Assembly (NCBI GenBank): GCA_001724275.1
Contig: MEDZ01000008.1
Coordinates: 1 to 64,000, forward strand
Direction: 5' to 3'
Origin: Gemmatimonadetes bacterium SCN 70-22
Lineage (GTDB): Bacteria > Gemmatimonadota > Gemmatimonadetes > Gemmatimonadales > Gemmatimonadaceae
DNA: 64,000 nt
Shown piece after piece: positions 44,488-63,610 of this stretch (position 1 is its first letter; the number at the start of each line of letters is the position of its first letter). A program made the position numbers and the translations under genes. The notes beneath the pieces are model-generated. The model saw only the letters and a list, made by a program, of their open reading frames with translations. It did not search any database and was not told where the DNA came from.

Positions 44488-44490
44488 GAG

Positions 44491-45539: not shown

Positions 45540-45600
45540 GTACATCCCGAGGCCCAGCGGGCTGTTCCCCTGAGTCACCCAGCCATCGTCGCGGGGCTGG

Positions 45601-45819: not shown

Positions 45820-45992
45820 GAGCGATCCCGGAACAGGAAAACCGGCAGCGGGCACTCGTGCCCGGCGGGCGCGCCGGCTGCCAAGCACCGGTCTTTCGCC
45901 CGATCTGCCTCCCTGGTCATGGACGCGCTTCGGCCGGCCCGCGTCATCACGGGTACGACGGCTCTCTCAGCTCACCCGAACTCCGGAACGCG

Positions 45993-46439: not shown

Positions 46440-46680
46440 GCTGCAGGCTACGCGACGAAGCGCGATCGGCTGGCGGACACGTAGTCTGTGGCAGTTTTTC
46501 TCAGCGCCAGCTCGACGGCCGTCGGCGCTGTGGGTGAGGCGAGGATCCTTCCGGGCGCCGTCTGTGCGAGTCGCTAACTCGTTGCTCGGGTTCGACATGC
46601 CGCACCCCAATGACGACGGGAAGATCACCGCCGATCTGCTGAGCTGCATTCGTGCAACTCCCTTGAGGTTCACAGGCGCG

Positions 46681-47604
46681 CTACACGACACCGCCGGCGC
46701 GTGTAGCCATCCAAGGGGCAGCCGTCCGCAATGTCAGGGGGGACTCGACTCGGTGCTCCTCGTACACGCTACAGGGTGGGATCTTCGCGGTCGTTGGGTG
46801 TGGGAGACTCCGGAAATCCGGCGTCGCGTGCGCGACGAGATCCAGATGCGGCAGGCCACGACCCATCATGGCCCGGCGAGCCGCCCGGGGGGTCCTAGGG
46901 GCGAACGCCTTGGCGATCTGCTTCCGCACAGACTCCAGCTGGTCAGGGTTGGCGCCAGTGAGCTCCAGCTCGAAGGGCATGGCCTCGTTCACGAGTCTTA
47001 CCGGGACGAGGGCATTGCACGTCCGGGCTAGTTCGGCCAAGGAGCGGACGTTCACGATCAGCCTCACCTCGCCATTACTCCGGTGGTGGAGACACCATGG
47101 TCCCAGGACCATGGGGTGTCTCATCCGTTCAACCCACCGTCTGGCCTCCTGCGCCATCTCGTCGCCACGTGGCTTGAGCCGCAGCACATCCAAAGCTCGC
47201 CGGCGGATCAGGGGCCACGCCTGCGCCGGGGGCTCAATGGTCCACCCCGCGGCTTCTCGGACAAGGCAGAGTTGGGAGAACTGGAGAACGTCCTCCAACC
47301 GTGCGACCACCCGGCCTCGAGGCGGCTGGCCGAGCTCGCGCCACCCGGCTCTCGTGGGCGTGAGAAACTGAACTGAGGCCCGCCCCAGGATCGGGTAAAG
47401 CGGCGCACTCTCGATCAGGCCCTCGGCGATCAACTGGCGGATCACCCGGAAGCCGTGGCTGCCCGCACGCCCATCCAGAATCCAGAACCTGAAGAGCACT
47501 TGGCGCACTGTCACGGCGCGCTGGGCCGCCACCCACATGAGCACCGGGAGGCGGAACCGCGAGAAGTCGCCGGCACGGTCTCGACCGGCGGCGGTTCTCC
47601 CCAT
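46681..47604 (-). CDS. winged-helix protein, replication-relaxation-like
   Basis: A 307-residue protein starting at 47604 (MGRTAAGRDRAGDF). The first third is a winged helix-turn-helix of the type in replication-relaxation proteins (FRLPVLMWVAAQRAVTVRQV, VIRQLIAEGLIESAPL, FLTPTRAGWRELG). The middle has a mixed alpha/beta domain with MRHPMVLGPWCLHHRSNG. It follows the Rep stop by 32 bases, and such proteins often accompany rolling-circle replication genes. This is an inference from motif wording and position; the C-terminus is not recognised. Confidence 0.6.
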   Translation of the reverse strand: MGRTAAGRDRAGDFSRFRLPVLMWVAAQRAVTVRQVLFRFWILDGRAGSHGFRVIRQLIAEGLIESAPLYPILGRASVQFLTPTRAGWRELGQPPRGRVVARLEDVLQFSQLCLVREAAGWTIEPPAQAWPLIRRRALDVLRLKPRGDEMAQEARRWVERMRHPMVLGPWCLHHRSNGEVRLIVNVRSLAELARTCNALVPVRLVNEAMPFELELTGANPDQLESVRKQIAKAFAPRTPRAARRAMMGRGLPHLDLVAHATPDFRSLPHPTTAKIPPCSVYEEHRVESPLTLRTAAPWMATRAGGVV

Positions 47605-47636
47605 AGTCCGCGAGTCGGCGCGATTGTCGCTGGCGC

Positions 47637-49373
47637 TCACGGCAGTCGCTCCCGAGCAGCCGCATACCTGTACGAGGTCTGCCTGCGAACGGCACCACGG
47701 TCCGACGCTCCGGTGTGAGCGCCCGGGACCATCGAGCTCGCGCACGCGTGGGGCCCTAGGTGCTGACGCTGACGCTGACGGCGACCGAGGACGACCATTT
47801 TGCGGAGCCGGGTCCAGCGGACGCGGCGGCGATGAGCGGCCGACACACCGGGCTCGGAAAAGCCAGGAGCCTGAGCCCCTTGGGCCGAGCGACGACCCGC
47901 GCGCCGCCGGTAGAGGCCGAGCGCGATCCGTGCCTGCCGAGACCTTCCCGAGTTGTTGCCCGCCGTCTGCATCGAGGGGTCCTCATGAGCCTCTATCGGC
48001 GCCTGACCATCCGGATCCGAGCCAGTAGCACCGCGCCCCCGGGGATCCCTCGCCTGCGAGACATCGCAACGCACGTCACGGGCAAAGGGGACAGGGGTCG
48101 GCCGGAATTCCTCCATGTAGACCCGCACCCGTGACCAGAACGCGTCGGAGGGCGCCACCAACTCGGGATGCAGTTCGCGGACGACCGCCGTCGCCACGCC
48201 TTGGAGGCCGCCCTCCACAGCGCCACGTTCCAGTCGGCGTATCGCTCCGGCCCGGGCCTCCAGCTTGTTGTAGATCTTCTTCGGGATGTCGGCGACGTGG
48301 GCCCCAGGGCCCGGGTCTTGTTCGCGTGGTTCCTGCTTGTCTTTCTCGTCGAAGATGCCCAGTACCTTCTGAAGGCGATCGAAGCCGGGGAGCAGTCGCT
48401 GTCTCAGGATCGCCTGCGAGTAATCCTTCCAAAGCTCCCGGTCGCGCTCATCTCCCGCGGCCGCGCTCTCCATGATGTCCCACACCGTCCGGCCGCCTGC
48501 GCCGCCTCCCGCGCGCGCCTCGGCCGACTTCACGAGGTAGTCCCCCGTGCCGGCCGCCACCTCTAGCGAGACTCCGTGAGTTGGCTGTGGCAGGTACCGC
48601 GGCCACTCCGCCGGTTCCAAATCGAGGTCCACGAGCGCGTGCTTGAGGGACCTGACCCACGCCTCGCTGATCGCCGTGGCCGTGCACGCGAGCGACGCAT
48701 CCGTGCCGAACTTGGACTTCGGCGCATCCGGCTGCACCACGAGCAGGACGTGGAGATGAGGGTGCCATCCGGCCCCTCCATGGGTGATGTCCAGCGCACG
48801 CACGGATCCCACGAGACCACCTTTACCGCGGAGGGGCCGCCAATCAGCTCCCCCGTTGAGGAACCGCCACGCGCGCGTGAGGAGCCGGATCAGGAAGTCG
48901 AGGCGATCATCGGCTGAATGGCGGAGCGTCAAGGTCAGCATGAACACGAGGAGACCCCGCGCTCGCGCCGCAGACACAGCGCGGCGCAGCTTCTTCGCCG
49001 CCTTGGCGCGCAGCCGCGGGGTGCACACGGGGCAAGCATGCGGGCTGCGGCAGAACAAGGGGCCTTTCGTCCGGGCCGTCCGGGCCCCCTGCTGGTCCTC
49101 TTCCACCCAGATCTCCGCCACCTTGCCCATCGCCCCCACACGCCCGCACTTGGAGGACGCACGGGTGGTCACCCCGCGCAGGCTCTCCCGCAGCGCAGCA
49201 CGCGCCTCGCTGTTGCTCTGGGTCGCAGCGTCGGTGTTTTCCCGGTGGTTGCAGTTCTCCTGAGTAGAGCCCCCGAGGAAGAGGAGCAGCTGGTCGAGCG
49301 AGCGGTCATCGCTTACCGGGGTGAGACTCAGCGACAGCGGGACGCCCGGGGCCTTGGGGTCAGGGGGGCACAT
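47637..49373 (-). CDS. rolling-circle replication initiator (HUH Rep)
   Basis: A 578-residue protein with the three motifs of a Rep_1-type rolling-circle initiator, in order: motif 1 FMLTLTLRHS (about residues 145-153), motif 2 HPHLHVLLVV with the HUH metal site (204-208), and motif 3 GDYLVKSAEA with the catalytic tyrosine near 279. A zinc ribbon precedes them (LFCRSPHACPVCTPRL), as in Rep proteins of actinobacterial plasmids and AICEs. The frame is open to 49559 from a TTG, and I prefer the ATG at 49373. The C-terminal extension after about residue 460 is basic and of low information, and may be partly unstructured. It would nick the origin and start replication, possibly also transfer. Confidence 0.85.
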   Translation of the reverse strand: MCPPDPKAPGVPLSLSLTPVSDDRSLDQLLLFLGGSTQENCNHRENTDAATQSNSEARAALRESLRGVTTRASSKCGRVGAMGKVAEIWVEEDQQGARTARTKGPLFCRSPHACPVCTPRLRAKAAKKLRRAVSAARARGLLVFMLTLTLRHSADDRLDFLIRLLTRAWRFLNGGADWRPLRGKGGLVGSVRALDITHGGAGWHPHLHVLLVVQPDAPKSKFGTDASLACTATAISEAWVRSLKHALVDLDLEPAEWPRYLPQPTHGVSLEVAAGTGDYLVKSAEARAGGGAGGRTVWDIMESAAAGDERDRELWKDYSQAILRQRLLPGFDRLQKVLGIFDEKDKQEPREQDPGPGAHVADIPKKIYNKLEARAGAIRRLERGAVEGGLQGVATAVVRELHPELVAPSDAFWSRVRVYMEEFRPTPVPFARDVRCDVSQARDPRGRGATGSDPDGQAPIEAHEDPSMQTAGNNSGRSRQARIALGLYRRRAGRRSAQGAQAPGFSEPGVSAAHRRRVRWTRLRKMVVLGRRQRQRQHLGPHACASSMVPGAHTGASDRGAVRRQTSYRYAAARERLP

Positions 49374-49707
49374 ATTGGAGTACGGCAGAGGGGGAAGCTC
49401 GCCGCCATCGGGGCGAGCACCGCGTGATGCACGTCGGCCCAATGCAGGCTGGCAGTCCTCGACTGCCCGCGGCAAGGCCACTGCGACGGCAATGCGGGAC
49501 ACGAACCCGGTTCCACGCGGGGCGGGCCTCCCACGCTTGTCGTCGGTGTCCCTGCACAACTATCCTGTCGACACGGAGGGTCGCCGCGGCGAACCTCGCC
49601 CGCGCGGTGCGACAAGACATCGGAGCTGACGCGCAGCGTCCGCACCCCGCGTTGATCCGGGAACCGGAGCGGGGCACGTATGCTGTGGCCCCACCTCGGA
49701 GCGGTTC
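49374..49707. other. divergent intergenic region of rep and serine recombinase
   Basis: About 330 bases. The first half keeps the rep frame open to 49559. The second half holds a TATGCT -10-like box at 49679-49684 and a Shine-Dalgarno-like CGGAGCGG before the recombinase ATG. Rolling-circle origins often lie close to rep, but I do not see a clear hairpin origin here. Confidence 0.4.
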
Positions 49708-50553
49708 ATGGCCCGGCGTACCGTCACTCGTCGCAGGAAAGGCGCGCCGACCACCACGGCGGTCGCCGAGGCCCGCGCCGGGATCTACATTCGCGTCTCC
49801 ACGTCGGAACAAGCGCTCGAAGGCGTGTCACTGGCTGCTCAGCTTGCGCGGGCAGAAGCGTACGCCCGCGCCGCGGGGCTGGAGGTCAGCGCGGTTTACC
49901 GGGACGAGGGAGTGAGCGGCGGAACGCCACTGTCGCTGCGTCCTGAAGGCGCTCGCCTGCTCGAGGCGATCCATCGCGGTGAGCACGCCCATGTCGTAGC
50001 GCTCAAGCTGGACCGCTGCTTCCGCGACGCCGTGGACTGCATGCGCACCGTGGAAACCTGGACCCGTAGCGGCGTGGCACTCCATCTAGTTGACCTTGGA
50101 GGCCAGACCCTGGAGACCCGAAGCGCCATGGGCAGGTTCTTCCTCGCCGTCATGGCCGCCTGCGCCGAGCTGGAACTGGGGAACGTGCGCGAACGCACCC
50201 GTCTCGCTCTCGCCCACAAGCGTGCACGCGGCGATCGACTCGGCGCGACGCCGATCGGGTTTCGGACCGCGAGTCCGGGCGCCCCGATGACGCCGAATGA
50301 GGCGGAGCTCCCAACCGTGCGACGCCTACTCGATCTGTGCTCGAACGACCTGCCCTTCACGCATGTCGCTCGCATCCTCACGATGGAAGGACATCGCGCG
50401 AAGCGCGGCGGGCAGTGGCATTCCGCTGCCGTACGCCGTGTGTGGCTGGCCCGGGAGCGTTACGCGGCGCTCCTGGCGCCCGACGTCGACATGGTGGGCA
50501 AGACGATCCAAAAGTCCGGACACGGCCAGCGCCAACGGCCTCCGGGCCTCTGA
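49708..50553 (+). CDS. small serine recombinase (resolvase/invertase type)
   Basis: A 281-residue protein. The catalytic domain begins GIYIRVSTSEQALEGVSLAAQ, with the nucleophile serine at residue 31, and continues with YRDEGVSGGTPLS and LKLDRCFRDAVDC. A long dimerisation helix includes FFLAVMAACAELELGNVRERT. The C-terminal recombinase-type DNA-binding region has ATPIGFRTASPGAPMTPNE and AVRRVWLARERYA. The Shine-Dalgarno-like CGGAGCGG lies three bases before the ATG. This is the second serine recombinase in the element; it may resolve multimers or act at another site. No TnpB-like gene is adjacent, so it is not an IS607-type transposase. Confidence 0.85.
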   Translation: MARRTVTRRRKGAPTTTAVAEARAGIYIRVSTSEQALEGVSLAAQLARAEAYARAAGLEVSAVYRDEGVSGGTPLSLRPEGARLLEAIHRGEHAHVVALKLDRCFRDAVDCMRTVETWTRSGVALHLVDLGGQTLETRSAMGRFFLAVMAACAELELGNVRERTRLALAHKRARGDRLGATPIGFRTASPGAPMTPNEAELPTVRRLLDLCSNDLPFTHVARILTMEGHRAKRGGQWHSAAVRRVWLARERYAALLAPDVDMVGKTIQKSGHGQRQRPPGL

Positions 50554-50640
50554 TTCAACCTTTTCGGACGTTTTTGACCAGTCGGTGCCAGCCCGGGTGA
50601 TCAACCGGCGCTCTTCTGCCGCGCCGACAGATCGACGGCA

Positions 50641-51591
50641 CTATCCTACAACGTCGTTCTCACTGCCTCGTTGGTTGCAGGCGTAGCACATCGAATAGCG
50701 ATCCAGGTGGCGCGCCTCTTGGCATTCCTTGCACAAGACCCACGTCCCGCCAGTCCTACAAGCGTTGCACTGTTGCTCGTCCAAGGGGTGCCACGCGTCG
50801 CGACACTCGACGCAGAGACGCACGCCGAGCTTGTCCCAGTTGAACGCGCAGGTCTTGCAGAACGTGGCGGTGCCATCGCCTGACATATACAGGGCGAACT
50901 CCTCGACGGCGCGCTTCACCGCGAGGCGATACAGCCAGTCATTCGTTGCCTGGTAGATCGGCTCGTACACCCTGGCGAACGCTTGCCGAAGAGCGAATTG
51001 CCCGCTTTCGACTCGGAGCGGCTGAACAAGGACCGGGTTGTCGAACTCGAACTGACACTGCCGGTGGTTGCGTGGAGATGCGCAGAAGTAGCGTGGCCTC
51101 CCGGCGCTGCGCCCGGTGCCCTTACGCTCCCGAAGATTCCAGCCGCCACACCTCGGACAGCCGGGGCGGAGATCCCCGTCCGGGCCGAGACGATCGCTAT
51201 ACTCGGGTTCAGCCGTGTGCTCACTGGCGAACTCTTCGTACAGCATTCGTCGGTGTTCGGCGCGAAGCTCCCGCAGCAAATCCTGCACTGACGCAGGTTG
51301 CCAGAGATGCTGGAGCGTGAACGGCGCCTCGGAAGTGCCGCACTGCTCGCACGTGGCCTGGATTCGCGATCGACGCAACGCGATCCACTCGGGAGTGTGC
51401 CAGTGGCGACCGCCGCGTATTGCGGCGAGTAAGCGTGCGTGCACGACTCGAGGCTCAACGGCGGACTGCTCCAAAGCCGCAACCAAGCCATCACACTCGG
51501 CTGCGGTAAGCGGCAGGACCCGCGCTTCCTGTTCCTCGGACTGTTCGCTTGAGATGGCGGGCTCGCGCACCGCCGGATCGTCAGACCTCAC
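50641..51591 (-). CDS. multi-zinc-ribbon protein of the type III R-M operon
   Basis: A 316-residue protein whose start overlaps the mod stop by 11 bases, so it is probably expressed with the R-M genes. It has about seven CXXC pairs: TCEQCGTS (C81/C84), GCPRCGGWN (C145/C148), CKTCAFN, LCVECRDAWH, QCNACRTGG, LCKECQEARH and MCYACNQRG. The first pair is followed by TLQHLWQP, which recalls an HNH-like or restriction-associated fold, but no complete catalytic motif is seen. No named family is recognised. It is an unusual third component for a type III operon. Confidence 0.65.
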   Translation of the reverse strand: MRSDDPAVREPAISSEQSEEQEARVLPLTAAECDGLVAALEQSAVEPRVVHARLLAAIRGGRHWHTPEWIALRRSRIQATCEQCGTSEAPFTLQHLWQPASVQDLLRELRAEHRRMLYEEFASEHTAEPEYSDRLGPDGDLRPGCPRCGGWNLRERKGTGRSAGRPRYFCASPRNHRQCQFEFDNPVLVQPLRVESGQFALRQAFARVYEPIYQATNDWLYRLAVKRAVEEFALYMSGDGTATFCKTCAFNWDKLGVRLCVECRDAWHPLDEQQCNACRTGGTWVLCKECQEARHLDRYSMCYACNQRGSENDVVG

Positions 51592-53728
51592 AGGTAAAGA
51601 GAACTTCCTCCCCCAGCATGTCTATGACCTTCACCGCGACGGTCGTCTTGCCCGCGGGGGCGGGGAGCTCGTACCGGCCCTCTACCAGGTCCACCTTGCC
51701 CTCGGGAACGTCGGTGAGCGCAACGTTGAACACCTGACCGTCGAATGCGGGGTCGATCATCACGCCGTCGACCATCGCGCGCCAGTCCTCGATGCGCGGC
51801 GCCAGCACACCCGCCTGCTGCTGCAGGCGCTGCACGATCGAGGGGGAGACAAAGTCCACCACCTCGACCTCGATCCGGCCGCCGCGCCGGCGCACACGGA
51901 TCTTCGCTTTCGCAGGCTCGTGTTTGAGGAACCCGCCGTACTTCGGGTCTGTGCGAAGCTCGATCACGCGGATCTTGTTCACGGCGTCGGCGCCGCGGCG
52001 TAGCGCGTTCCATTCGTCGACCCATGCCCGAGCGCCGAGCTCCATGCCAAGGCAGACCATTGTGACCGGGCGGTCCTCCTGCGGACGCGCGTCGAGCTCT
52101 CGCCGCAATTCCTCTAGGTCGAGCGGCGTGAGCGGCCGACCGAAGGGAACGATCTTGACCAGCGAGGTGCCGAGTATGCCATCGAAGTACCCATCGGTGC
52201 GCGAGCGCAGCAGACCCAGGTAGTCGGCGGCGAGGTTGACGGCCTCGTTGTGCTGCACCTGTAGGTCATAGTCGTTGACGCGCCAGGTAGAGAACGAGAG
52301 CTGCGCCGGGGCAGGGCGATCGCCATCCAGCCCGAGGCCCGCCTGGGTGGACGCTTGCTCTTCGATCACATCCTGCAGCCGCCTGGCCGTGGTCTGGATC
52401 GCACCCTTGTTGATGTCGCATCCGATCCAACGGCGCCCGAGCTTCTGCGCGACGGCCGCGGCGGTGCCTGAACCGATGAAGCAGTCCAAGACGATGTCGC
52501 CTGGGTTAGAGGATGCGAGGACGACACGCTCGATGAGCGCTTCGGGCTTCTGCGTCGGGTAGTCCTCGCGCTCTGATCCGACCATGTTGATGGGATCGAC
52601 GTCATCCCAGAAGTCGGTGCAGGCACGGCCTTGCGTTTCGGCCTCGTATCGCTTGAGTCGCGGCCATGCGCCTTCGCGCGCGGGCCAGTAGATCTTCCCC
52701 TCGGCGTCGAGGCGGTCCAGCGCCGTGGGGACCTTGGCCCAGTGTCGCCCGAGCGCGGACGGATTGAACCCGCGCCATGCCTCGCCGGAAGGGCCCCGGC
52801 GCAGCCCCGGCGCCGTCAGCTCGCCAAGAGCATACGTGCCCTGTTCATCTCGATGGCGGTAGTGGCGGGTGCGATGCGTCTCCGTCATCTCCTGGTATTG
52901 CTGATTCCACCGGCCCTGCTTGGGATCGAGCGAGTAGAAAAGCAGATAGTCCGTGACCGCACCAAACTGGTGGGCACCAGCGTGAGCGGTCGTTCGCTTC
53001 CAGGAAACCTGGTTTCTGAACGCATCGGGCCCGAACACCTCGTCGAGGAGGAAACGCAGGTGGTGCACCTTGCGCGCGTCGATGTGCACATAGATCGACC
53101 CGTTCCCTGCGAGCAACTCACGCAGGAGCAACAGCCGCTCGTACATGAACTGCAGGTAGTTGTCGTTCGCCCAGATGTCGGTGTATTGGATCTGCTCCCC
53201 GAGAGTGTAGCCTTCGCCATTGAGCCGTGCGGTGCCCGTGGCCCCTCTGAGTGACACCTTCCGCACGTAGTCGGCACCCGAGTCGAACGGGGGGTCGATG
53301 TAGATGAGGTTTACCTTCCCGCGGAAGCCGCTCGCCAGGAGATGCGCGAGGACCTCCTTGTTATCACCGTGGAAGAGAAGGCCTCCGTGAGGGTAGGCTG
53401 CAGGCCAGTCCGCCGACGCGGCAAGGGCTGCGGCGCCGGTGGGCTCGAACGCCTCGACCTGCTGCGCCGGGAATGCCTTCAGGTGCCGGAGCGGGCGCTT
53501 GCCGACCCATGTGAGCATTGGTCGGCCCTTCGCCGCGGTGATCTTCACCTCGACTGGTGACGGCACCGTAGGAGCGTTCGGCGCCGATGATGCTGCCGCG
53601 CCCTCGGTCGCCGACGTCGTGCTCTTCGCCTGCCGCTTGGGCGTTGTCGCATTCGTTCTCGCTCCGCTCTTGGCGGTGGCAGCCTTCTTGGGCGCACCCG
53701 CGCCCCGTCCGTTCGCCCTCTTACTCAC
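51581..53728 (-). CDS. mod: type III DNA methyltransferase (Mod)
   Basis: A 715-residue DNA methyltransferase of the beta group: motif IV LIYIDPPFDSGADYVRK (DPPF at 145-148) comes before motif I VLDCFIGSGTAAAV (D415 to G421), with QKPEALIERVV in between. These residues bind S-adenosylmethionine and place the target adenine. The N-terminal 60 residues are an Ala/Lys/Thr-rich flexible tail. The C-terminal part is the recognition and Res-binding region. It overlaps the res gene by eight bases and the downstream zinc-protein gene by 11 bases. The order res before mod is the reverse of the classical EcoP1/EcoP15 order. Recognition sequence unknown. Confidence 0.92.
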   Translation of the reverse strand: MSKRANGRGAGAPKKAATAKSGARTNATTPKRQAKSTTSATEGAAASSAPNAPTVPSPVEVKITAAKGRPMLTWVGKRPLRHLKAFPAQQVEAFEPTGAAALAASADWPAAYPHGGLLFHGDNKEVLAHLLASGFRGKVNLIYIDPPFDSGADYVRKVSLRGATGTARLNGEGYTLGEQIQYTDIWANDNYLQFMYERLLLLRELLAGNGSIYVHIDARKVHHLRFLLDEVFGPDAFRNQVSWKRTTAHAGAHQFGAVTDYLLFYSLDPKQGRWNQQYQEMTETHRTRHYRHRDEQGTYALGELTAPGLRRGPSGEAWRGFNPSALGRHWAKVPTALDRLDAEGKIYWPAREGAWPRLKRYEAETQGRACTDFWDDVDPINMVGSEREDYPTQKPEALIERVVLASSNPGDIVLDCFIGSGTAAAVAQKLGRRWIGCDINKGAIQTTARRLQDVIEEQASTQAGLGLDGDRPAPAQLSFSTWRVNDYDLQVQHNEAVNLAADYLGLLRSRTDGYFDGILGTSLVKIVPFGRPLTPLDLEELRRELDARPQEDRPVTMVCLGMELGARAWVDEWNALRRGADAVNKIRVIELRTDPKYGGFLKHEPAKAKIRVRRRGGRIEVEVVDFVSPSIVQRLQQQAGVLAPRIEDWRAMVDGVMIDPAFDGQVFNVALTDVPEGKVDLVEGRYELPAPAGKTTVAVKVIDMLGEEVLFTCEV

Positions 53729-56387
53729 GTCCGTCCTCTGCGAACCGAGCGATGCCCGCGACCTCGTCGGTCGGGATCACGCCGTTCCTGTCGAAGATGA
53801 TCTCGTAGCGGAGCCGCTCCGGGTTGAGCTGCTCCCAGCGCTTTACGGCGAGCGCCTTCCTCCCCTCGGGGCTCTTCGCATCACCGACCTCCATCTCGTG
53901 CTCCACCGTCGCCTGGAACTGGCTGCTCTTCACCTCGACGATGAGCACGCGACCTGACCCGGGCTTCGCCCCCTGGTCCGGCTTCTTCCGTATCACAAAG
54001 TCCGGCGTGTAGCGGCGCCATTTCCCCTTGTCGTCCTTGTACTCGACGTAGAAGTCTGTCTTGGCAGGGTCGGTCAGCGCTCCGGTGAAGAACACGTCCT
54101 CCACCTCATCGTGACCGACTTTCAGCTCGCGCAGGAGCTGCTCGAAGAAGTTGAGTTCCGTGTTCGAGTCGAAATCGTACGGGCTGTAGTGGAAGCCAAG
54201 ATCGCGCGGATTGCGGTCCTGCATGGCTTCCCAGGAGAGCAGCAGATGCTCGCGCTCCTTCGGGTAGACGATCTCCGCGGTGTAGACGTCGGCCCCGCTC
54301 GCGTCTCGCTCGAGTTGGAACCCCTCGGGACGCACGAGCGCAAGCGCGACGTCAACCTTCTCCTCCGTGACGGCGTACGCTCCCTGCCACGCCTCGATCT
54401 GGCGGCCCAATACCTCCAGGTGAGCATCGGGGATGTCGTCAGCCGCATAGAGGCGCCTGACCTCGTCATAGACGGTCCACGTGTCGAGCCGGTACCGTCC
54501 CGCCAATGCCACCGCGGCGCCGTAGGCGTCGAGTCCCTCCGGAGGCGTCTCGATGGTCACTGTCTCGCCCAGCTGATGCAGGACAGTGAAGCTGGACTCC
54601 TGGTCCGCGATCGTGAGCTCTGCCCGGAGCAGCTTCGCCCCGGCGGCCGATTTGGGCCGCTGCAGGACCAGCGGCCCACGGTCCATCTCCGGCGCGCGCT
54701 CGATCCGGCGCAGCGTCTGTGTCACAACGAGGGGCGGCAGATCGAGCTTCCGTAGGACGATGCGCGCCCGCCGCGTCTCGCGTGCCGTGTGGTCCAGGTC
54801 CTGGAGCGACTCCCCGAAGGTCTCCTGGAGCTGCCTGTCGAGGATCGCGCGGTTGTCGTTCGACAGGTAGATGCGCGCGGGCTTCCCGTTCCCCGGGACC
54901 TGGCGCAGGCAGCGGGTCGCCGCCTGCAGGACGAAATTGTTCGAGGTGCGGAGCTTCCGAGCGAGCGCGCAGGCGAACAGACTCGGGCAGTTCCACCCCT
55001 CGGTCCCCTTGTTGACCAGCAGGATCACCCGATGCGGGGCCGACGGGTCGTTGAGCCGGTTGAACGCATCGACCTCCGCGGCCGATGCGTCCGAAGTGTT
55101 CTCCAGTGCGAGCGCCACCGGGATTCCGGCCGCTACCATCGCCTCGTCCACCACGGGCCGAAGCTCCTGCAGGTCATCCTTCTGGGGGAAGTAGATCGCC
55201 AGCTTCGCGGGCGCGCCGTTGGGCAGGGTGGTGTCGCCGTACTCTCGGAAGAAGTCGGTGACGACCTCGCGCACGTACGCGCTGGCGTCTCCATCGAACT
55301 CATAGGAGAGGATGTTGCCGGCGACGTCCTTGAGGATGCCGTCGCGAATCCCCTCGGCAAGCCCGTACCAGATCACCACGTCGCGCAGCGGCTGACGTTC
55401 GAAGTACGGCGTTCCGGTTGTGTTGACCACGGCGTAGACGTTGGTCTGCGCGGCCAGGTAGTCGACCGTCTTGCGGACCTTCTTGAGCTCCGCGTCGAGC
55501 GATTGGCCATAGGTGTGGTGCGCCTCGTCGGAGAAGATGGCGAGGTGGGGGAGACTAGCAATCGCCTGCAGGCGCAGGTTCGCGACCTCGGCGCGCGCCT
55601 CATCCTCGCGCCCCGGGGCGAAAAGACTCCCGATGTCGCTCTTCCGGACCGTCTCCTTCTGAATCCGGATCTTCTCGGTGTTGGTGACGATGACGTTGAA
55701 GAGCGACTTCCGGATGACAGGAAGGTCTTTCTCCCCGTCGCGGGTGAAAGTCAGCTTGATCGTCGCCGCGAAGGGGCTGTACATCCGCGGCGGCAGGACG
55801 CGCTCGTACGGGATCTCGACCAGCTCGCGCAGCGACTCGATGATCGTTTTGCCGGGGGCGAACACCAGCGCGTTCTGGACGAACGGGCCGTCGGGGTACT
55901 CCATCGCCATGGCGAACTCCGTGGCGACGATGGTCCCGATGAGGATCGTTTTGCCGGCCCCCATGGCGAGCGCCAGGATGTAGCTGGGGTAGCCGAGCGT
56001 GAGCGTCTCGCGAACCGACTCGAGCTTGAAATCGCGGACGAACTGATCGTCGATCCGGATGCGATCCCAGAGCGCCGGCATGCCCTCGTCCTCAACCAGA
56101 TCCCGGATCTCACTCGCGGTCAGCCCGAGGGCTGCACGCAACTCGGAGCTCTTGGTGTAGAGCCGCTGGTACAGCTCGAACACGTGCGGCGTCTTCTCGA
56201 TCAGGCGGAGGTACCAGTAAGTCTCGAGGGCCCGGAGCTGCGGGGTCCGAAGGAACCTGAGCTGGCCGGTGCCGGGTTCGCGGGCCCAGTCAAAGAGCTC
56301 TCCGATGGCGGGGTAGTCAGCGCACGGGTAGCCGGCTTGGCGCCATGCGGCGACTGCGCTGGCCAGCTTCTCGTGAAGGTGCGGCAT
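53721..56387 (-). CDS. res: type III restriction enzyme (Res)
   Basis: An 888-residue SF2 helicase-nuclease. Helicase motif I is AMGAGKTILIGTIVA (K146) and motif II is FSDEAHHTYGQ (DEAH at 287-290), with AATRCLRQVPGNG in the later motif region. At the C-terminus is a PD-(D/E)xK nuclease: YTPDFVIRKK (D796) and LIVEVKSSQ (E818, K820). The protein translocates or slides along DNA and cuts unmethylated sites when bound to Mod. The arrangement of domains and the adjoining mod gene make the assignment secure. The start at 56387 is an ATG near the beginning of the alignable N-terminal region. Confidence 0.92.
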   Translation of the reverse strand: MPHLHEKLASAVAAWRQAGYPCADYPAIGELFDWAREPGTGQLRFLRTPQLRALETYWYLRLIEKTPHVFELYQRLYTKSSELRAALGLTASEIRDLVEDEGMPALWDRIRIDDQFVRDFKLESVRETLTLGYPSYILALAMGAGKTILIGTIVATEFAMAMEYPDGPFVQNALVFAPGKTIIESLRELVEIPYERVLPPRMYSPFAATIKLTFTRDGEKDLPVIRKSLFNVIVTNTEKIRIQKETVRKSDIGSLFAPGREDEARAEVANLRLQAIASLPHLAIFSDEAHHTYGQSLDAELKKVRKTVDYLAAQTNVYAVVNTTGTPYFERQPLRDVVIWYGLAEGIRDGILKDVAGNILSYEFDGDASAYVREVVTDFFREYGDTTLPNGAPAKLAIYFPQKDDLQELRPVVDEAMVAAGIPVALALENTSDASAAEVDAFNRLNDPSAPHRVILLVNKGTEGWNCPSLFACALARKLRTSNNFVLQAATRCLRQVPGNGKPARIYLSNDNRAILDRQLQETFGESLQDLDHTARETRRARIVLRKLDLPPLVVTQTLRRIERAPEMDRGPLVLQRPKSAAGAKLLRAELTIADQESSFTVLHQLGETVTIETPPEGLDAYGAAVALAGRYRLDTWTVYDEVRRLYAADDIPDAHLEVLGRQIEAWQGAYAVTEEKVDVALALVRPEGFQLERDASGADVYTAEIVYPKEREHLLLSWEAMQDRNPRDLGFHYSPYDFDSNTELNFFEQLLRELKVGHDEVEDVFFTGALTDPAKTDFYVEYKDDKGKWRRYTPDFVIRKKPDQGAKPGSGRVLIVEVKSSQFQATVEHEMEVGDAKSPEGRKALAVKRWEQLNPERLRYEIIFDRNGVIPTDEVAGIARFAEDGRE

Positions 56388-56699
56388 GCAGGGGGGACTG
56401 GAGAGAGGTCAGCCTGACCGGACTGGGTACGCGGAGGATAGTCTACTACGGGGCGAGGAAACGCCAGACCAAATCTGCAACCGGTGGCCACTCAACGAGA
56501 TGCAATGCGCCGCCCGGCCTTCCCAAAGCAAGCCACTAGGTGATATGGTCGGCACCGGAGGCACGTTTGCGGGACGCACGGCCACCCGGCCCCCGTCCGA
56601 GCCTCCCCCACGCGCGAGCCTCGCCGGCAAGCGCCCCGTCGCGATCGTCGACGTCAGGGTGCCTCCCCATCGCCAGACACACTGCCCATTCTTTTCACC
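56388..56699. other. divergent intergenic region of res and STAND gene
   Basis: About 310 bases, less GC-rich than the flanking genes in places (for example around 56440 and 56470). It should hold promoters for both defence operons. I saw no hairpin or operator worth reporting. Confidence 0.4.
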
Positions 56700-59600
56700 A
56701 TGAGTCTGCGTCGGGGCAACCTCCAGCCGGCACACCGTGGGTACTGGTACCAGGACATCGCGACCGCGTACATGCTCGTCCGCGCGATGGTCGAGCGCTA
56801 CGATGCGGTGATCGTCGACCGGAAGGTCGTGGACGACGATCGCCTCGACGACCTGGAGGTGCGCGCCGCGGGCCGGCGCGTCCGACGACAGTTCAAGTCG
56901 AGCCAGGACGCGGCGCGGCCGCTGAGCGCGCAGGACTTCACGGCGACCGCCTCAAGCCTCCGCATCGACCGGCTGGTGCGCACGCACACTCGGGCCGGCG
57001 ATTCGCCGGCCGACGAGTACCGGCTGTGCGCCACGTGGGCGCCGCCCGACGCGGGCGATCCGCTCGCGGCGCTGCTCGAACCGATTACGGCCCCGCCTAC
57101 GCTAGTCGGCTGGCCCATCCGCTGCTTCCGGCTCAAGGCCGAGCTGATCTGGCCAACAGGAGCGAGCCCGATCTGGGCGCCGCTCACCCCGCCCACAGCC
57201 TCGGGTACCGCAGCGAGCGCCGATGCGGGCACCGCCGGTGGCGCGGCGCCGGTCGCGCCGATCACCCGCGCCGAACTGCTCGACTTCTGCCAGCGATTCA
57301 TCATCGAACTGGCCCTCCCCGTCGCGTCGACGGAACTAACCGCGCCGGGCCCGTTCGAGCGCGCACTCGTCGAAGAGCTCGCCGAACGGGTAGGCATCGG
57401 TCGCTACCCAAACCACGGCCGCGCGCCCTCGGACGTTGCGGCGCTCGCCATCGCGCTCGCCACGATTGCTCGCACGCAGGAAGGGTCGCTTACGCCGAGC
57501 GACGTCGAGCGGGAGCTGGAGATCCGTGTGGACTTCGGCCGCGTGGCGCAGGCGTTCCCCCTCGACGCCGCGCTGTTCCACGACCGGCCGACGTTCCGGC
57601 AGGCCCTACGAACCACGGCGCTCGCCGGCGGCCACCAGCTCGTCATCGCACCCCCGGGCGCCGGGAAGTCGTGGGAACTGACCCGGCTCGCCGAGGAGCT
57701 GACTGCGGCCGGCGCCATCGTCGCACGGCACTACTGCTACCTCGAGCCCGGAGACGCGCTCGTCGAGCGGCGGGTGACCACAGACGTGTTCTTCGGCAAC
57801 CTGCTCGGGGAGTTGCTCGACGCCGACCCGTCGCTCCATGGCGCCGGCGGCGCCCGATATGCCGCGGGCCTCGGCGAGCTCGAGGCGACTCTGGCGCGCG
57901 CGGCGGCGACCGGGCGCCCGGTGGTGCTGATCGTCGACGGTATCGATCACATCGCGCGCGTGCGAAGCGACACCCGTCGTCTCGGGGACGCCGAGACCGA
58001 CATCGTCGAGCGCCTGGCGACGGCGCAAGTGCCGCCGGGCGTGGCGCTCGTGATCGGCTCGCAGCCCGGGCGTCACCTCGAGCCGCTCCGCGAGCGGTGG
58101 GGCACTGCGCTGCTCGAGCGGACGGTGCCGCCGTGGCTGCCGGCCGACTTGGCGGCGCTGGCAGACCGCCAAGGACTGACGCGCGCCCTCTCCGCGGTCG
58201 GCGTCACGTCGGCCGGCGACATGGCGCGTGTCCGCAGCGCCCTCGCCGAGCGGGCCGACGGGCTCCCCCTGTACGCGCACTACCTCGCACGCGGGCTGGT
58301 GGCGGGCCTGCAGGACGGCACCATCGCGTCCCCGGACGAGTGGCTCGACGCAGCGCCCGCGACCGGCGGCGACGTGGCCGTCTACTACGCGCACCTTTAC
58401 CGCAGCGCGAGCGCGCAGGCGCAGGTCATCGCCGATCTGCTCGGCGTCATCGATTTCTCCGTCACCGAATCCGAGCTCCGCGAGATGGTGCCGGCCTTCG
58501 TCGGGGCTTGGCTACCGCCGGCGCTCGCACAGCTCGCGTCGATCCTGACGGTGGCGACCGGCCAGGGCGGCTTCCGCATCTTCCATGAGAGCTTCCGCCG
58601 TTTCATGACGCAGGAGCTCGCGCGGCAGGGCCGGTCCCCAGCCGACGCGCTCCGCCCGGTGATCGACTGGCTCACCGCGCGTGGGTTCTATGCCGACGCG
58701 AAAGCGTACCGCTTCCTCCTGCCGGCGCTCCGCCGCGCCGACCGGGGCGCCGAGATCCTGGTGCGCGTCGACGCGGCATTCGTCTCCGACAGCGTCGCCC
58801 AGGCGCATGCGGCCGACGCCGTCCAGCGGAACCTCGCCCTCGCCGCCGACGTGGCGGCCGAGCGCCGCGACTGGCCGGCGCTCGTGCGCTGCGTCGAGCT
58901 GCACCGCGCCGCGTACACCTGCTTCGACGAGTCCCAGAACGACTGGCGCGACTACTGGGCCACCTACCTGACGCTCTTCGGCCCCACCGCCCTGGCCGAG
59001 CGCCTCCTGTTCGACGGCCGACCCACGCAGTCCGCGTCCGACGGGCTCTACGCCTGCGCGCTCGTCGACGACGCGGGCGGGATCGCACCGTGGCAGGAAT
59101 ACCTCGCGCTGTACGACGCGGGCGCGCGCGGGAACGCAAACCCGTCTGGCTTGTCGGACTCCGAGGGGAGCCTCACCTCGACGGAGGCCATTGACCTCGC
59201 CGCGGTGCACGGGCGCATCCGGCTCGGCGAGTGGCGTGGGGTCGCCCGGCGGCTGCTCACCTACCTCGCGGAGGTCGGCGACCGCTTCAAGCCGCTCTTC
59301 GTCCGGCAACTGGCGGCCCGCATGGCGCGGATGCTGGGCCCGGAGCTGGTCGAGCGGATGGCACAACGCGCAGATCCGACTCGCCCCGGCGGCCCGCGCC
59401 TGAGCCGGCGGGCCGCGGCTGTGCTCCGCCTTGGCCTCGCGGACGAACTCGCGCGCGCCGGCGACGACGCGGCAGCGCGCGCGGCGGCCGGCCGCGCGTT
59501 CCCAGACGCGGACACCCCAGCGCTGGCGGCGGCGTGTGTGGCGTACAGCGCCGGCGAGCCGGACCCCGGCCAGCCCCCCGTGTGGTCACCCCACCCTGGC

Positions 59601-62600
59601 GCGGCGGTCGATCCGGCTGCGCTCCCGATCGCCGTCGGCCCCGACGTCCACCTGCACGACGCGGCCGGCGTCCGCGCTTGGGTCGCCGCCGTCCGTCTCG
59701 CCGCCGCCGACCCTGCGGGCGGGCCGGCGACCCTCGAGGCAGAGTGGCGGCGCGTCACAGGGGTCGGCTGGTATCGCTGCTGGCTCCGCTTCGTCTTGGG
59801 TCTCTCGCGGGCGGAGGCCGCGCGTTACGCCGGGCAGGCCGCCGACGTCAGCGGCGCCTTCGCAGAGCTCACACGTGACGTCCACCCCTTCCGCGGGCAG
59901 CCTCGGGCGTGCGACCTCTGGGCCATCCGCTTGGTCATCCAGGAGAGCATCGCGCGGGGGCTTCGGCTCCTGTGCACGGACGCCGAGTGGCGAGACGCTC
60001 TGACAGCGCTGGCCCTCGCCGCCGGTGAGACGTCCACGCGCATGGACCGGGAGGATGGTGGGCCGCTCTCCACGGGCACCGTGCTCGAGGTGCTGCTTCC
60101 GCACGCGGCAGATCCCGTCGGGGGTGCCCACGTGCGGGCGACAATCGAGCGCCTGGTGGCAGCCCTCGAGGCGAACGGCACCTACTACCCGACCCATGCG
60201 GAGTACGCGATGCGCTTGGCGCGCGCGCGGCACGCGGCGGGCGATGTGGCCGGCGCGCGCGAGGCGTGGGCGCGCGGCGCGGTGTACCTCGGCGCGTACG
60301 GATGGCGGAAGGACGTGACCATCTACGACATCATCGAAGGCGCATCCGCCCTTCTCGCGCACTCGCCCGAGCGCGCGCTCCGCGCCCTCGCGGACACGCA
60401 GCCGCTCGTACACGCCGTCGTCGCGCACACTGACGGCCGCTCGACCAACCACGCGCCCAATACGTGGCTCCGCGGCGTGCTGGCGGCGCGGATACCGGCG
60501 GGCCTCGCGGTCCTCGCCCGCACACTCGTGGAGGAGGACGACCCGAGCGGCTGGGTCAACGCACTGGCGGTGCAACACGCCGCCGCGGCCGCCAGAGGGG
60601 CGGGAGACCCCGGGCTCGTGGACGCCGTGCTCGCGACGCTGCGTTTCGAGGCGGACGACCACGACGCGCTCGAGCGCATCGACGCCCGCTTGGCACCGGT
60701 CCTCGGCCTGCTCCATACGGATCGTCCGCGAGCGGTTCGGGCGCTCCGGCGAGTGGCCGCCGAGGTGACGGGGGACGGGCGGCGCGACGCCACCACTGCG
60801 GCGGCCCGCGTCGTTGCCGTCGCGGAAGAACACGGGCTCTCCGTCCCGCGCATCGCGCGCGACAGCGCGGCCGCCGGCATGTCCGCTGCGTCGGGGCCCC
60901 CTAGCGGACTCTCCTCGCCCACGGGGCACGGGTCGAGGCGCTTTCGACCGGACGAGGTAGACCGCGCGCTGGGCCTCCGCGAGCCGCCGTTCGTCCCGAA
61001 CCCCACCCTGGTCGACCTGCTCGCGGGACTCCGACGGGCGGCGGCCTCACGTCGCTGGGACGAGCCCGGGGGTGCGGAGCACGTGGCGCTCTCCCTCGGC
61101 TATCGACTCGGGCAGCTCGTCGACGACGGACGGGAGGACGACGTCGGGCGGCTACTCCGCTTCTTCGCCCGGGACGCAGGGGCTTGGGGGTCGAGCCAGG
61201 TGCATCCGCTCGGGACGCTGGCGGATGCCTTGGATGCAGGCGGCTATCCGGGGCCGGCGGCGATCGCATACGCCCTCGCCTTCACGGCTACGCGCGGTGG
61301 CAACGGGTGGCACCGCCTCGGCGATACGACCCACGGCTATCTGATCGACCGCGCCATCACGCTCGACCCGGATCTGGCGCGTCAGGTCATCGCGGACGAG
61401 GTGGCGTACGCCCTCCGCGAGAGCACGTACAGCAGCGGGATCACGCGGCACCTCGTGGAGCGCCTCGCTGCGTGGGGTGAACCCGAGACGGCGGAGGCGG
61501 CGTGGCGCGAGGCGTTAGCGGTCATTCGGCACCGGCTCCCGCTCGTCCCGGCGCAGGGGTGGTTCGCGCCGCTACGAGACGAGCGGGAGCCCGATTGGCC
61601 GGATGACGGCTGGTCCGTCGACGAGGCGCTGATGGCGGTGCTGCTCGCCCGCCTCGGGGACCCGCGGCTCGCGCAGAAGGTGCAGGCGCTCACCGGCGTC
61701 GTCGATGCGATCGCGCGCCGCCCCGACGCGGTCGCCGCGCCGATGCGCTGGTGGCTCGGACGGAACACGCCGGTAACCGCCGTGCTGCTCGCGTTGGAGG
61801 CGCTCGTCCGCGCTGAGCCGGCGCCGTTTCCGATCACCACCGCCCTCGACGAGGTCTTGCGCGGCTACGCCGCCTGCGACCTGTGGGGCGCGCGACGTCT
61901 CGCGGCCGCGCTGCTCGAGCGGGCGGGTCGGCCTGCGGCAGCCGAGCCGAGTTCCGGCGGCGCCGCAACCGGGACGACGGGGCTGCCGGCGATCGACGCG
62001 GCACGGCACCGAGCTCTCAGGACACTCGATACCGGGCGGGTGTTGGACGACCTGGAGTCGCTCTGGCCAGCGCTGCCAGACCGCGTCGTGCGACGCCTGC
62101 ATGCCTTGCTGACCGAGGGCGACCACCGCGAGCGGGCGCATGCGCGCTACCGGCTCGCCGAGGGGCGCGACGGCGATGCGCACCCGCGCACGCCCATCGT
62201 GCCGTGGGAGGTGGAACTCTTTCAGGTGGCGCTCCACGAGGCGTCGTGCGGCCTGTCCGCACACCTGTGGAGCACCGGGCAGTGGGCACTCGGGCTTGAG
62301 GACGCCGTGGTGCGGCGTGCACTGCCCGACGTGCGTCTGCACCTAGGCTTGGCCGCGAGCCGGGCGCCGCGACCGCCTTGGCCCGCCGCCGAGACCGTAA
62401 CCGAGGGCGTCTCGCTTCCTCTGGTGCTGGGCGACGATGACCCGTATTACGCCGGCTGGACGCGCTTGGCGTACTTGGAGAGGCGATACCTGCCGGACCC
62501 CAATGCCCCGTACGGGCGGCCGACCGAGGAGATCACAGTGCTCGCGGGGGTCGTAGCGGTCCCGCTCGGCCGGGCGGTGCCGCCCGGCGCCGTGCCATTC

Positions 62601-63023
62601 GTGGACGGCGATGCCCAGGACTGGTGGTCCCCAGACGGAGAGTTCGGAGGGGGACGGGCGTCGGTCGCACTGGCCCGGGCAGAGGGGCCCCTGGTGGGGC
62701 TGGACCGTGTCACCGATTGGCTGGGCGACACGGACGTGCTGGTGCCGCCTGCAGCCTTGGTCGACTTGCTGCACGTGGCGGCACCTGAATTCGGCGGACC
62801 GCTCGTCTGGCGCGATGATCAAGAGAGCCCGGCGGTCGCGCTTCGAACCTGGTGGGTGCGCAACGGTGAGGCACTCTTCGCCGAGCCGGCCGCATGCGTG
62901 GGCGCCGACCTCGTGATCCGGCCCGACCTGTTTGAACGTTTGTGCGTCAGCTTCGGAGTGCCGCTGCGCGAGCTACGCGCAGTTCTCCGGCGTCCGGTCC
63001 CGGGACGGCGCGCGCGGCCATGA
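56700..63023 (+). CDS. giant STAND NTPase with N-terminal nuclease-like domain (Avs-type candidate)
   Basis: A 2107-residue protein. Residues 1-90 look like a DUF4297/Cap4-type PD-(D/E)xK nuclease: HRGYWYQDIATAYMLV, the acidic cluster DDDRLDDLEV (residues 45-54) and RRQFKSSQD (Q64, K66). A STAND NTPase domain follows: Walker A QLVIAPPGAGKSWELTR (K323), Walker B PVVLIVDGIDHIARV (D413) and LVIGSQPGRHLEPL as the sensor strand. The remaining 1500 residues are Ala-rich helical repeats of TPR/HEAT type, as expected of a sensor. This layout is that of Avs antiphage proteins, which bind conserved phage proteins and then degrade DNA. The family match is by motif wording only; the target is unknown. 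It is divergent from the type III res gene. Confidence 0.75.
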   Translation: MSLRRGNLQPAHRGYWYQDIATAYMLVRAMVERYDAVIVDRKVVDDDRLDDLEVRAAGRRVRRQFKSSQDAARPLSAQDFTATASSLRIDRLVRTHTRAGDSPADEYRLCATWAPPDAGDPLAALLEPITAPPTLVGWPIRCFRLKAELIWPTGASPIWAPLTPPTASGTAASADAGTAGGAAPVAPITRAELLDFCQRFIIELALPVASTELTAPGPFERALVEELAERVGIGRYPNHGRAPSDVAALAIALATIARTQEGSLTPSDVERELEIRVDFGRVAQAFPLDAALFHDRPTFRQALRTTALAGGHQLVIAPPGAGKSWELTRLAEELTAAGAIVARHYCYLEPGDALVERRVTTDVFFGNLLGELLDADPSLHGAGGARYAAGLGELEATLARAAATGRPVVLIVDGIDHIARVRSDTRRLGDAETDIVERLATAQVPPGVALVIGSQPGRHLEPLRERWGTALLERTVPPWLPADLAALADRQGLTRALSAVGVTSAGDMARVRSALAERADGLPLYAHYLARGLVAGLQDGTIASPDEWLDAAPATGGDVAVYYAHLYRSASAQAQVIADLLGVIDFSVTESELREMVPAFVGAWLPPALAQLASILTVATGQGGFRIFHESFRRFMTQELARQGRSPADALRPVIDWLTARGFYADAKAYRFLLPALRRADRGAEILVRVDAAFVSDSVAQAHAADAVQRNLALAADVAAERRDWPALVRCVELHRAAYTCFDESQNDWRDYWATYLTLFGPTALAERLLFDGRPTQSASDGLYACALVDDAGGIAPWQEYLALYDAGARGNANPSGLSDSEGSLTSTEAIDLAAVHGRIRLGEWRGVARRLLTYLAEVGDRFKPLFVRQLAARMARMLGPELVERMAQRADPTRPGGPRLSRRAAAVLRLGLADELARAGDDAAARAAAGRAFPDADTPALAAACVAYSAGEPDPGQPPVWSPHPGAAVDPAALPIAVGPDVHLHDAAGVRAWVAAVRLAAADPAGGPATLEAEWRRVTGVGWYRCWLRFVLGLSRAEAARYAGQAADVSGAFAELTRDVHPFRGQPRACDLWAIRLVIQESIARGLRLLCTDAEWRDALTALALAAGETSTRMDREDGGPLSTGTVLEVLLPHAADPVGGAHVRATIERLVAALEANGTYYPTHAEYAMRLARARHAAGDVAGAREAWARGAVYLGAYGWRKDVTIYDIIEGASALLAHSPERALRALADTQPLVHAVVAHTDGRSTNHAPNTWLRGVLAARIPAGLAVLARTLVEEDDPSGWVNALAVQHAAAAARGAGDPGLVDAVLATLRFEADDHDALERIDARLAPVLGLLHTDRPRAVRALRRVAAEVTGDGRRDATTAAARVVAVAEEHGLSVPRIARDSAAAGMSAASGPPSGLSSPTGHGSRRFRPDEVDRALGLREPPFVPNPTLVDLLAGLRRAAASRRWDEPGGAEHVALSLGYRLGQLVDDGREDDVGRLLRFFARDAGAWGSSQVHPLGTLADALDAGGYPGPAAIAYALAFTATRGGNGWHRLGDTTHGYLIDRAITLDPDLARQVIADEVAYALRESTYSSGITRHLVERLAAWGEPETAEAAWREALAVIRHRLPLVPAQGWFAPLRDEREPDWPDDGWSVDEALMAVLLARLGDPRLAQKVQALTGVVDAIARRPDAVAAPMRWWLGRNTPVTAVLLALEALVRAEPAPFPITTALDEVLRGYAACDLWGARRLAAALLERAGRPAAAEPSSGGAATGTTGLPAIDAARHRALRTLDTGRVLDDLESLWPALPDRVVRRLHALLTEGDHRERAHARYRLAEGRDGDAHPRTPIVPWEVELFQVALHEASCGLSAHLWSTGQWALGLEDAVVRRALPDVRLHLGLAASRAPRPPWPAAETVTEGVSLPLVLGDDDPYYAGWTRLAYLERRYLPDPNAPYGRPTEEITVLAGVVAVPLGRAVPPGAVPFVDGDAQDWWSPDGEFGGGRASVALARAEGPLVGLDRVTDWLGDTDVLVPPAALVDLLHVAAPEFGGPLVWRDDQESPAVALRTWWVRNGEALFAEPAACVGADLVIRPDLFERLCVSFGVPLRELRAVLRRPVPGRRARP

Positions 63024-63240
63024 CATGCGCCGGTCCTACGGCCATCTGGTGCCCGTCGACGGCGAATCGGCTCGTGTAGCGAAGCTGCCGGCCGCGCTCC
63101 GCCCATGGGAATGTTCCCGGACCGAGGGGCCTGTGCGCGTGAAACGAAGCGACGACAACTCACGGCAAATGAAGGCGCCTCCACTACTTGCGCCTGTGCT
63201 TGGCGAGTGTCCGCGCTCCCGTCCCGAGGCGGATTCGGAA
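63024..63240. other. right end of the element, no gene recognised
   Basis: About 215 bases between the STAND gene stop and attR. In the excised circle the minus strand at 63261-63184 would encode the last residues of the integrase, ending at a TAG at 63184-63186. Confidence 0.55.
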
Positions 63241-63290
63241 ATGGTTATACCGGCACACCTCCCAGGAGGTGTGCCCGTGGAACGTGCGGT
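63241..63290. other. attR of the serine-integrase element
   Basis: Right junction. The element arm ATGGTTATAC and the following bases (63241-63261) lead into the 17-bp core (63262-63278), with the putative CA crossover at 63263-63264. Host queG sequence coding for WNVRFSREL continues on the right. The left arm is the inverted copy of the arm at attL. Confidence 0.85.
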
Positions 63291-63610
63291 TCTCACGGGA
63301 GCTGGCGGAGGATTCGCCGTTCAAGCCGCGTGACGTTCTGCGGGGTCGCGATGCGAGAACGCTCGCGCGCGAGCTGCTCGCGATGTCGCAGGAGGAGTTC
63401 TCCGCCGCGTTCCGCAAGTCGCCGATGAAGCGGGCGAAGCTGCGGGGGCTCAAGCGCAATGCGGCAGCGGTGCTCGGCAACGTTGGCAGTGGCGATGATG
63501 TCGATGTGCTCACACGTGCGCTCGATGACGAGGAGCCGCTCGTGCGCGAGCACGCCGCATGGGCGATCTCGCAGATCGCTAGGCGGATCTCGAGTTCAGC
63601 AGCTGGATGA
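63262..63610 (+). pseudogene. queG: displaced 3' fragment of host queG
   Basis: The frame encodes QEVCPWNVRFSREL, then LARELLAMSQEEFSAAFRK and VLGNVGSGDDVDVLTRALD, matching the C-terminal part of QueG. It lacks the first 250 codons and any start of its own. It differs from the element-borne tail at 39926-40326 at many positions, so it is not a recent copy. The final HEAT-like repeat seen in the left copy is missing; the frame ends at 63610 in overlap with the convergent flavoprotein gene. Not expected to be functional. Confidence 0.88.

What the first reader, a model, noticed from the sequence alone, without database searches (positions are those of the whole stretch)
63241..63278. Rejoined attP is a 46-bp near-palindrome with a CA centre
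Joining the right arm (63241-63263) to the left arm (39911-39933) gives 46 bp that matches its own reverse complement except at one symmetric pair and at the two central bases. The centre is CA (63263-63264, or 39910-39911). Large serine integrases use sites of about this size with a non-palindromic central dinucleotide, so this is an independent prediction of the crossover point. The rebuilt attB also shows weaker dyad symmetry around the same CA.
Basis: partly seen in the sequence, partly recalled or inferred. Interest (0 to 1): 0.75.

Follow-up and report, generated by a model that had tools for sequence, protein, structure and literature searches.

The report
Self-splitting integrase site in queG
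A mobile DNA element in a soil-type bacterium inserts itself into a tRNA-modification gene at a mirror-image DNA site, and that site also lies inside the gene for the enzyme that does the inserting, so each insertion appears to cut the tail off its own enzyme.

Summary
The palindrome is real: joined arms match at 21 of 22 pairs around CA; 5 million random joins from the window reached at most 18. It is the attP of a 23.35-kb element (39911-63263) in queG, which brings a replacement queG 3' end and a large serine integrase. Related junctions in Gemmatimonadota (44 in 26 of 395 genomes) place the crossover within three bases, CAG, that hold the predicted CA; some hosts and elements have AA instead, and host and junction agree in 16 of 16 stretches.

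It runs antisense through the queG cap and, in the circle, across attP into the other element end, finishing with a conserved tail of about 25 residues. In 26 of 49 element ends the stop is at one fixed codon, using three different stop codons. Integration thus severs the integrase's own C-terminus. (2) The site is an accretion hotspot: tandem integrase-less cassettes (1-13 kb), each with a queG cap and the same end.

Best filed as a new variant of serine-integrase islands. Self-splitting is shown by sequence; that it works as a switch is inferred.

The parts
39911..63263 (.). Element E1 (23,353 bp), inserted in queG
39888..39933 (+). attL (B-left + P' arm); centre CA 39910-39911
63241..63286 (+). 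attR (P-left arm + cap of the next element); centre CA 63263-63264
39001..40326 (+). Hybrid queG ORF; an ATG at 39163 is a likelier start. Host 5' part to 39910, element-borne 3' cap 39911-40326
   Evidence: QueG_DUF1730, Fer4_16, HEAT_2
40326..42035 (-). Conserved body of the large serine integrase (570 aa)
   Evidence: Pfam; alignment; fold
39567..42035 (-). Integrase ORF as it reads in the integrated state: 822 aa, crossing attL into the host part of queG
63184..63262 (-). Severed C-terminal tail of the integrase (EVCRYNHFRIRLGTGARTLAKHRRK, stop), joined to the body only in the circle (734 aa)
63264..63610 (+). queG 3' cap of the second element (E2, CPWNVR type)
42601..44247 (-). AAA ATPase, shared with the G079 element (48% identity)
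47637..49559 (-). Rep_1 replication-initiator-like protein
49708..50553 (+). Second, small serine recombinase (Resolvase domain only)
51581..56387 (-). Methyltransferase and ResIII-type protein (restriction-modification-like cargo)
56700..63023 (+). 2107-aa NTPase, weak Avs1b match (cargo)

Best explanation
The 46-bp palindrome is the attP of a large serine integrase that inserts elements into queG at the codons for its CQEVCP iron-sulfur motif; strand exchange is at CA. The element carries a replacement queG 3' end, so queG stays open. Shown by sequence: the integrase frame has no stop before attP; it is read antisense through the element-borne queG cap and, in the circle, over attP into the other element end, where a conserved tail and stop lie. 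Integration separates that tail from the enzyme. Inferred: the 734-aa circle-form integrase performs attP x attB; the integrated form, lacking the tail, cannot repeat it, so integration is self-limiting, and excision needs an RDF or an integrase supplied in trans. The element's single attL (B-P') can pair with any of the attR-like (P-B') junctions downstream, so it can carry or leave behind trains of integrase-less cassettes in queG.
For: Palindrome. Integrase identity. queG lies tail-to-tail with the integrase in 14 of 18 loci examined; 2 (L015, L023) lie elsewhere and 2 end at contig ends. The integrase C-terminus is next to 10 of 12 full genes in the family that read CPYN[RH]K (not G383, G064). 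Crossover. CA/AA agreement in 16 of 16 stretches, AA in G054 and G249; G269 agrees across contigs. Frame through the cap: no stop in 17 of 18 distinct P-type caps (the exception, G383, has no integrase) against 26 of 50 Trp-type caps, Fisher P 0.0013. Tail: fixed stop slot in 26 of 49 (TAG 20, TGA 4, TAA 2); mean BLOSUM62 of substitutions -0.66 in this frame against -1.13 to -1.43 in the other five; conservation ends at the stop. G073 holds an unexcised P-P' junction with integrase remnant, cap antisense and tail in one open frame.
Against: No experiment. No free circle seen: an intact-attP pattern gave nothing in viral contigs, and in the family only G073 and G244 hold (buried) P-P'-like junctions. 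The antisense frame of queG is often open in GC-rich DNA anyway. Codon-position periodicity alone is weak (permutation P 0.022), and the queG frame on the + strand shares the same wobble positions. The left arms are related, so counts are not independent. In G134 the end nearest the integrase element is frameshifted. The 5-bp inward shift of the zinc-ribbon motif known from A118 was seen only in the B-left arm (5 of 9), not in B' (2 of 9). G018 has AA in its full gene but CA at a junction on another contig.
Confidence: 0.72

Rival explanations
1. Ordinary serine-integrase island. The integrase reads through attP only because antisense frames in GC-rich DNA are often open; the tail has no role and the left arm is conserved solely as DNA.
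For: 26 of 50 Trp-type caps are also open in this frame. The inner 25 bp are conserved as DNA. The queG + frame is open in 43 of 49 arms too.
Against: Conservation continues to -76 and ends at a stop codon kept in 26 of 49 with three different codons; conservative substitutions only in this frame. P-type caps are open in 17 of 18.
Confidence: 0.18
2. Integrase-less cassettes move on their own as circles with a P-B' junction that the integrase accepts as attP, like gene cassettes of an integron.
For: Cassette-bearing genomes often lack the integrase: 19 of 26 (searches compared). Cassette ends are conserved. Cargo is varied.
Against: Serine integrases are reported not to recombine attL or attR efficiently with themselves or other sites without an RDF (PMC3783163, passages read). 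Outer arms of Trp-type caps do not mirror P: mean 4.3 of 10 pairs against 7.3 for Tyr/Phe caps.
Confidence: 0.25
3. The queG caps are tandem duplications or pseudogenes made by homologous recombination, not by site-specific recombination.
For: Caps are homologous and in direct repeat.
Against: All breaks fall at the same base triplet with the same arm on the left; the reversed-pattern control gave 0 matches.
Confidence: 0.03
4. The palindrome is an operator or replication feature unrelated to recombination.
For: Near-perfect palindromes are typical of repressor sites (recalled).
Against: It exists only after joining the two element ends, and its left half marks element boundaries in 26 genomes.
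Confidence: 0.02

Closest known systems
Large serine integrases (phiC31, A118, Bxb1)
   Same: Domains, fold, about 25-bp half-sites, pseudo-palindromic attP, central dinucleotide (PMC3783163, passages read)
   Different: attP lies inside the integrase gene, and the gene overlaps the target gene's replacement end antisense; no match in phages or plasmids
Archaeal suicidal tyrosine integrases (SSV type)
   Same: att site within the integrase gene; integration splits it (PMC8371274, abstract and passages read)
   Different: Tyrosine enzymes; the review calls self-disrupting recombinases exclusively archaeal. Here it is a serine enzyme in bacteria and only a short C-terminal tail is lost
Mycobacteriophage BPs integration-dependent immunity
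   Same: attP inside an ORF, so integration shortens the protein's C-terminus (PMC4557955, abstract and passages read)
   Different: There the ORF is the repressor
Staphylococcal cassette chromosome (SCC) elements
   Same: Serine recombinases, insertion at a housekeeping gene's 3' part, tandem composites (recalled; one search gave listings only)
   Different: Here about a third of the protein is replaced and the target is queG; relation to Ccr was not tested
Integrons
   Same: Arrays of small cassettes with varied cargo (recalled)
   Different: Serine enzyme, target is a gene, each cassette bears a queG cap, no attC tested

Membership tests
Large serine recombinase | N-terminal resolvase domain with catalytic serine | tested here: met
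   PF00239 33.3 bits over cut-off 23.3; S29 invariant in YxRKS
Large serine recombinase | Recombinase domain and zinc ribbon with coiled coil | tested here: met
   PF07508 34.3 bits; C336, C339, H360, C380 invariant; long helices 406-508 in the model. Zinc binding itself not tested
Large serine recombinase | attP and attB of 40-50 bp sharing a central dinucleotide | tested here: met
   dinucleotide CA or AA agrees in 16 of 16 stretches
Large serine recombinase | Zinc-ribbon motif shifted 5 bp inward in attB | tested here: inconclusive
   5 of 9 in B-left, 2 of 9 (own) in B'
Large serine recombinase | Recombination activity | not testable with these tools
   Needs purified protein
Suicidal (self-disrupting) integrase | att site within the integrase ORF | tested here: met
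Suicidal (self-disrupting) integrase | Tyrosine recombinase of archaea | tested here: not met
   Serine recombinase; host Gemmatimonadota by record titles of relatives
SCC element | Insertion in rlmH | tested here: not met
   Target is queG
SCC element | ccr recombinase genes | not tested
   No ccr family comparison was run
Integron | Tyrosine IntI and attC sites | not tested
   No IntI or attC search; left ends showed no conserved RNA structure

The most novel reading that the evidence does not exclude
A bacterial 'suicidal' serine integrase: one stretch of DNA is at once the recombination site, the C-terminal code of the target protein QueG on one strand and the C-terminal code of the integrase on the other. 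Integration clips the integrase tail, giving a built-in one-way switch, and integration in tandem restores it (P-P' junction), so array position decides which integrase is active. The element shuttles integrase-less cassettes into queG, a serine-enzyme counterpart of the integron.
Probability: 0.4. Interest if true: 0.85.

Novelty: new variant of a known kind. Interest (0 to 1): 0.68.

Why it matters
What sets the direction of serine integrases is of practical and basic interest. Here the DNA itself would change the enzyme's C-terminus on integration, which can be tested with two alleles. It also gives a new, chromosomally targeted integrase with a conserved attB in a gene found across Gemmatimonadota, and a hotspot where arsenic-type, restriction-type, PIN and transport genes collect.

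Tried and rejected
RNA structure in the conserved 77-bp left end: none, alifold energy 0. A 5-bp zinc-ribbon shift in attB: only half supported. My own first idea that the third queG cap is plainly the host's: not supported by identity, since the E2 cap and the third cap both have 74 of 115 residues in common with the empty-site relative G089; only its outermost position suggests it. Free circles or virus carriers: none in viral contigs, plasmids or phages. A scan of genome contigs with the integrase peptides found nothing; the junction pattern found 17 stretches. A phmmer search of PDB sequences gave nothing. Papers: 10 searches listed none that by title or abstract start treats queG as an integration site or a serine integrase with attP inside its gene; the library is open-access only. 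Rows left out of counts: duplicates L192, L194 and L040 (17 of 18 instead of 20 rows with 19 open); one search's list stops at 150 rows (137 Trp, 13 not, counted by eye), with 296 of 395 genomes matched. Caps that fit no class (G073 15657, G346a 10630, G304, G342 1584) were left out of the P/W comparison; all four were open in the integrase frame. G134's first junction (43289) was left out's site table, and its first element is therefore missing there; the 37,665-bp G134 interval spans that junction.

Full report
Observation. Joining 63241-63263 to 39911-39933 gives the stated 46-bp near-palindrome with CA at the centre. It matches at 21 of 22 pairs; five million random joins from the window gave at most 18. 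The weak dyad in attB is 7 of the inner 12 pairs, P about 0.03.

Setting. The left flank is the 5' part of queG, cut at the codons of the CxxCQEVCP iron-sulfur motif; the element brings its own 3' end, so a full hybrid queG is read (39001-40326). Pfam sees QueG and HEAT domains in the hybrid. Tail-to-tail with this cap lies a large serine integrase. Its model (pLDDT 69.8) finds 18 PDB chains at E<=0.001, all serine recombinases. Downstream of the window a third queG 3' end appears, so 63264 to about contig position 68675 is a second element, with an ArsR-type regulator, a methyltransferase, an SBF-family transporter and a GNAT acetyltransferase, which together look like an arsenic set (the arsenic reading is mine).

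Relatives. The integrase is found in 17 of 395 genomes of the phylum at E<=1e-20. The phylum name, Gemmatimonadota, comes from record titles, where 14 of 17 stretches bear a Gemmatimonad title and the other three (Acidobacteria, Burkholderiales, Kuenenia MAGs) may be misbinned. In 14 of 18 loci the integrase lies tail-to-tail with queG. A pattern for the left arm plus cap found 44 junctions in 26 of 395 genomes, and 0 for the reversed pattern. 19 of these 26 genomes have no integrase. Arrays reach seven or more caps. 33 intervals between successive junctions run from 1.0 to 37.7 kb; cargo seen includes a PIN protein (match below Pfam's cut-off), SLFN/AlbA, sulfate permease, DUF6036 nucleotidyltransferase and radical SAM.

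Crossover. In 43 junctions the base before the centre is always C, while full genes have T in 12 of 21. From +4 on, the bases follow the cap: in G134 the same left arm is followed by AGC or GAC. Exchange thus falls in CAG; symmetry picks CA. In hosts whose codon is Asn (AAY), both the full gene and the junction have AA (G054, G249; G269 on two contigs). One case disagrees across contigs, G018, perhaps contamination.

Arms. Caps next to an integrase read CP[YF] with TAYAACCRTAA-like DNA in the main family; of 150 listed full genes 137 read CPW (by eye). Of the 12 full genes in the family with CPYN[RH]K, 10 have the integrase end beside them. Such caps mirror the left arm better in its outer part: mean 7.3 of 10 pairs (n=6) against 4.3 (n=26) for Trp caps. 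P thus resembles P' in outer sequence while B' differs, as expected for this enzyme family (PMC3783163, passages read).

The integrase gene spans attP. The ORF has no stop between the conserved body and attP in the six elements tested and is 822 aa as integrated in the window. In the rebuilt circle it ends 73-76 bp past the centre in own, G079 and G244; for the window it is 734 aa. The 49 distinct left arms, translated in this frame, give W-E-x-C-R-x-x-[RH]-F-x-[IV]-x-L-x-T-G-x-R-T-L; after removing near copies, Leu is found in 45 of 47 and Gly in 40 of 47 at their columns. A stop sits in the same slot in 26 of 49, as TAG, TGA or TAA, and conservation falls to about 0.1 bit beyond it. Substitutions are most conservative in this frame. 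Caps of the P type are open in the frame in 17 of 18, Trp-type in 26 of 50. G073 shows the whole run unjoined by me: integrase end, cap antisense, centre, tail; its integrase is otherwise a remnant.

Mechanism. Shown: sites, crossover triplet, cap exchange, frame across attP. Inferred: in the circle the integrase has its tail; after integration it ends elsewhere (in G134 and G244 a stop arises at the centre itself, where the host Cys codon is TGT), which could stop re-integration and leave excision to an RDF or to a helper. Since arrays have one B-P' site and many P-B' sites, canonical attL x attR excision could take E1 with any number of cassettes and later leave some behind. How a Trp-type cap came to sit in a cassette is not settled; gene conversion of P' to B' is one possibility, untested.

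Known systems. Splitting of an integrase gene by its own att site is reported as exclusively archaeal and of tyrosine type (PMC8371274, abstract and passages). attP inside a repressor gene is known in mycobacteriophage BPs (PMC4557955, abstract and passages). My ten paper searches listed no serine case and no queG case; one listed paper on integrase prospecting does not mention queG or Gemmatimonadota in its main text (PMC12884075, term search).

Judgement. The stronger finding is that this palindrome is written over two genes on opposite strands, one of them the integrase itself.

Noticed in passing
63264-64000 and contig to about 68675 (L004): Second element without integrase, carrying an ArsR-type regulator, methyltransferase, SBF transporter and GNAT protein.
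   Followed up: partly
51581-63023: Defence-like cargo: methyltransferase, ResIII protein, 2107-aa NTPase with a weak Avs1b match.
   Followed up: partly
47637-50553: Rep_1 protein and a second small serine recombinase within E1, hinting at replication of the circle.
   Followed up: no
G073 C1 4940000-5026000 (L094-L098): Eight queG caps or cap pieces in one single-contig genome and a natural P-P' junction with an integrase remnant.
   Followed up: partly
G018 C44 and C48 (L171, L170): Full queG has AA at the centre but a junction on another contig has CA; contamination or exception.
   Followed up: no
L145, L154, L155: Junctions in MAGs titled Acidobacteria, Burkholderiales and Kuenenia; misbinning or wider spread.
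   Followed up: no
G134 C21 (L090): Integrase gene followed by a second partial copy of its N-terminal part; the nearest element end is frameshifted.
   Followed up: no
L198 (G064), L193 (G383): P-type caps with no recognisable integrase beside them.
   Followed up: partly
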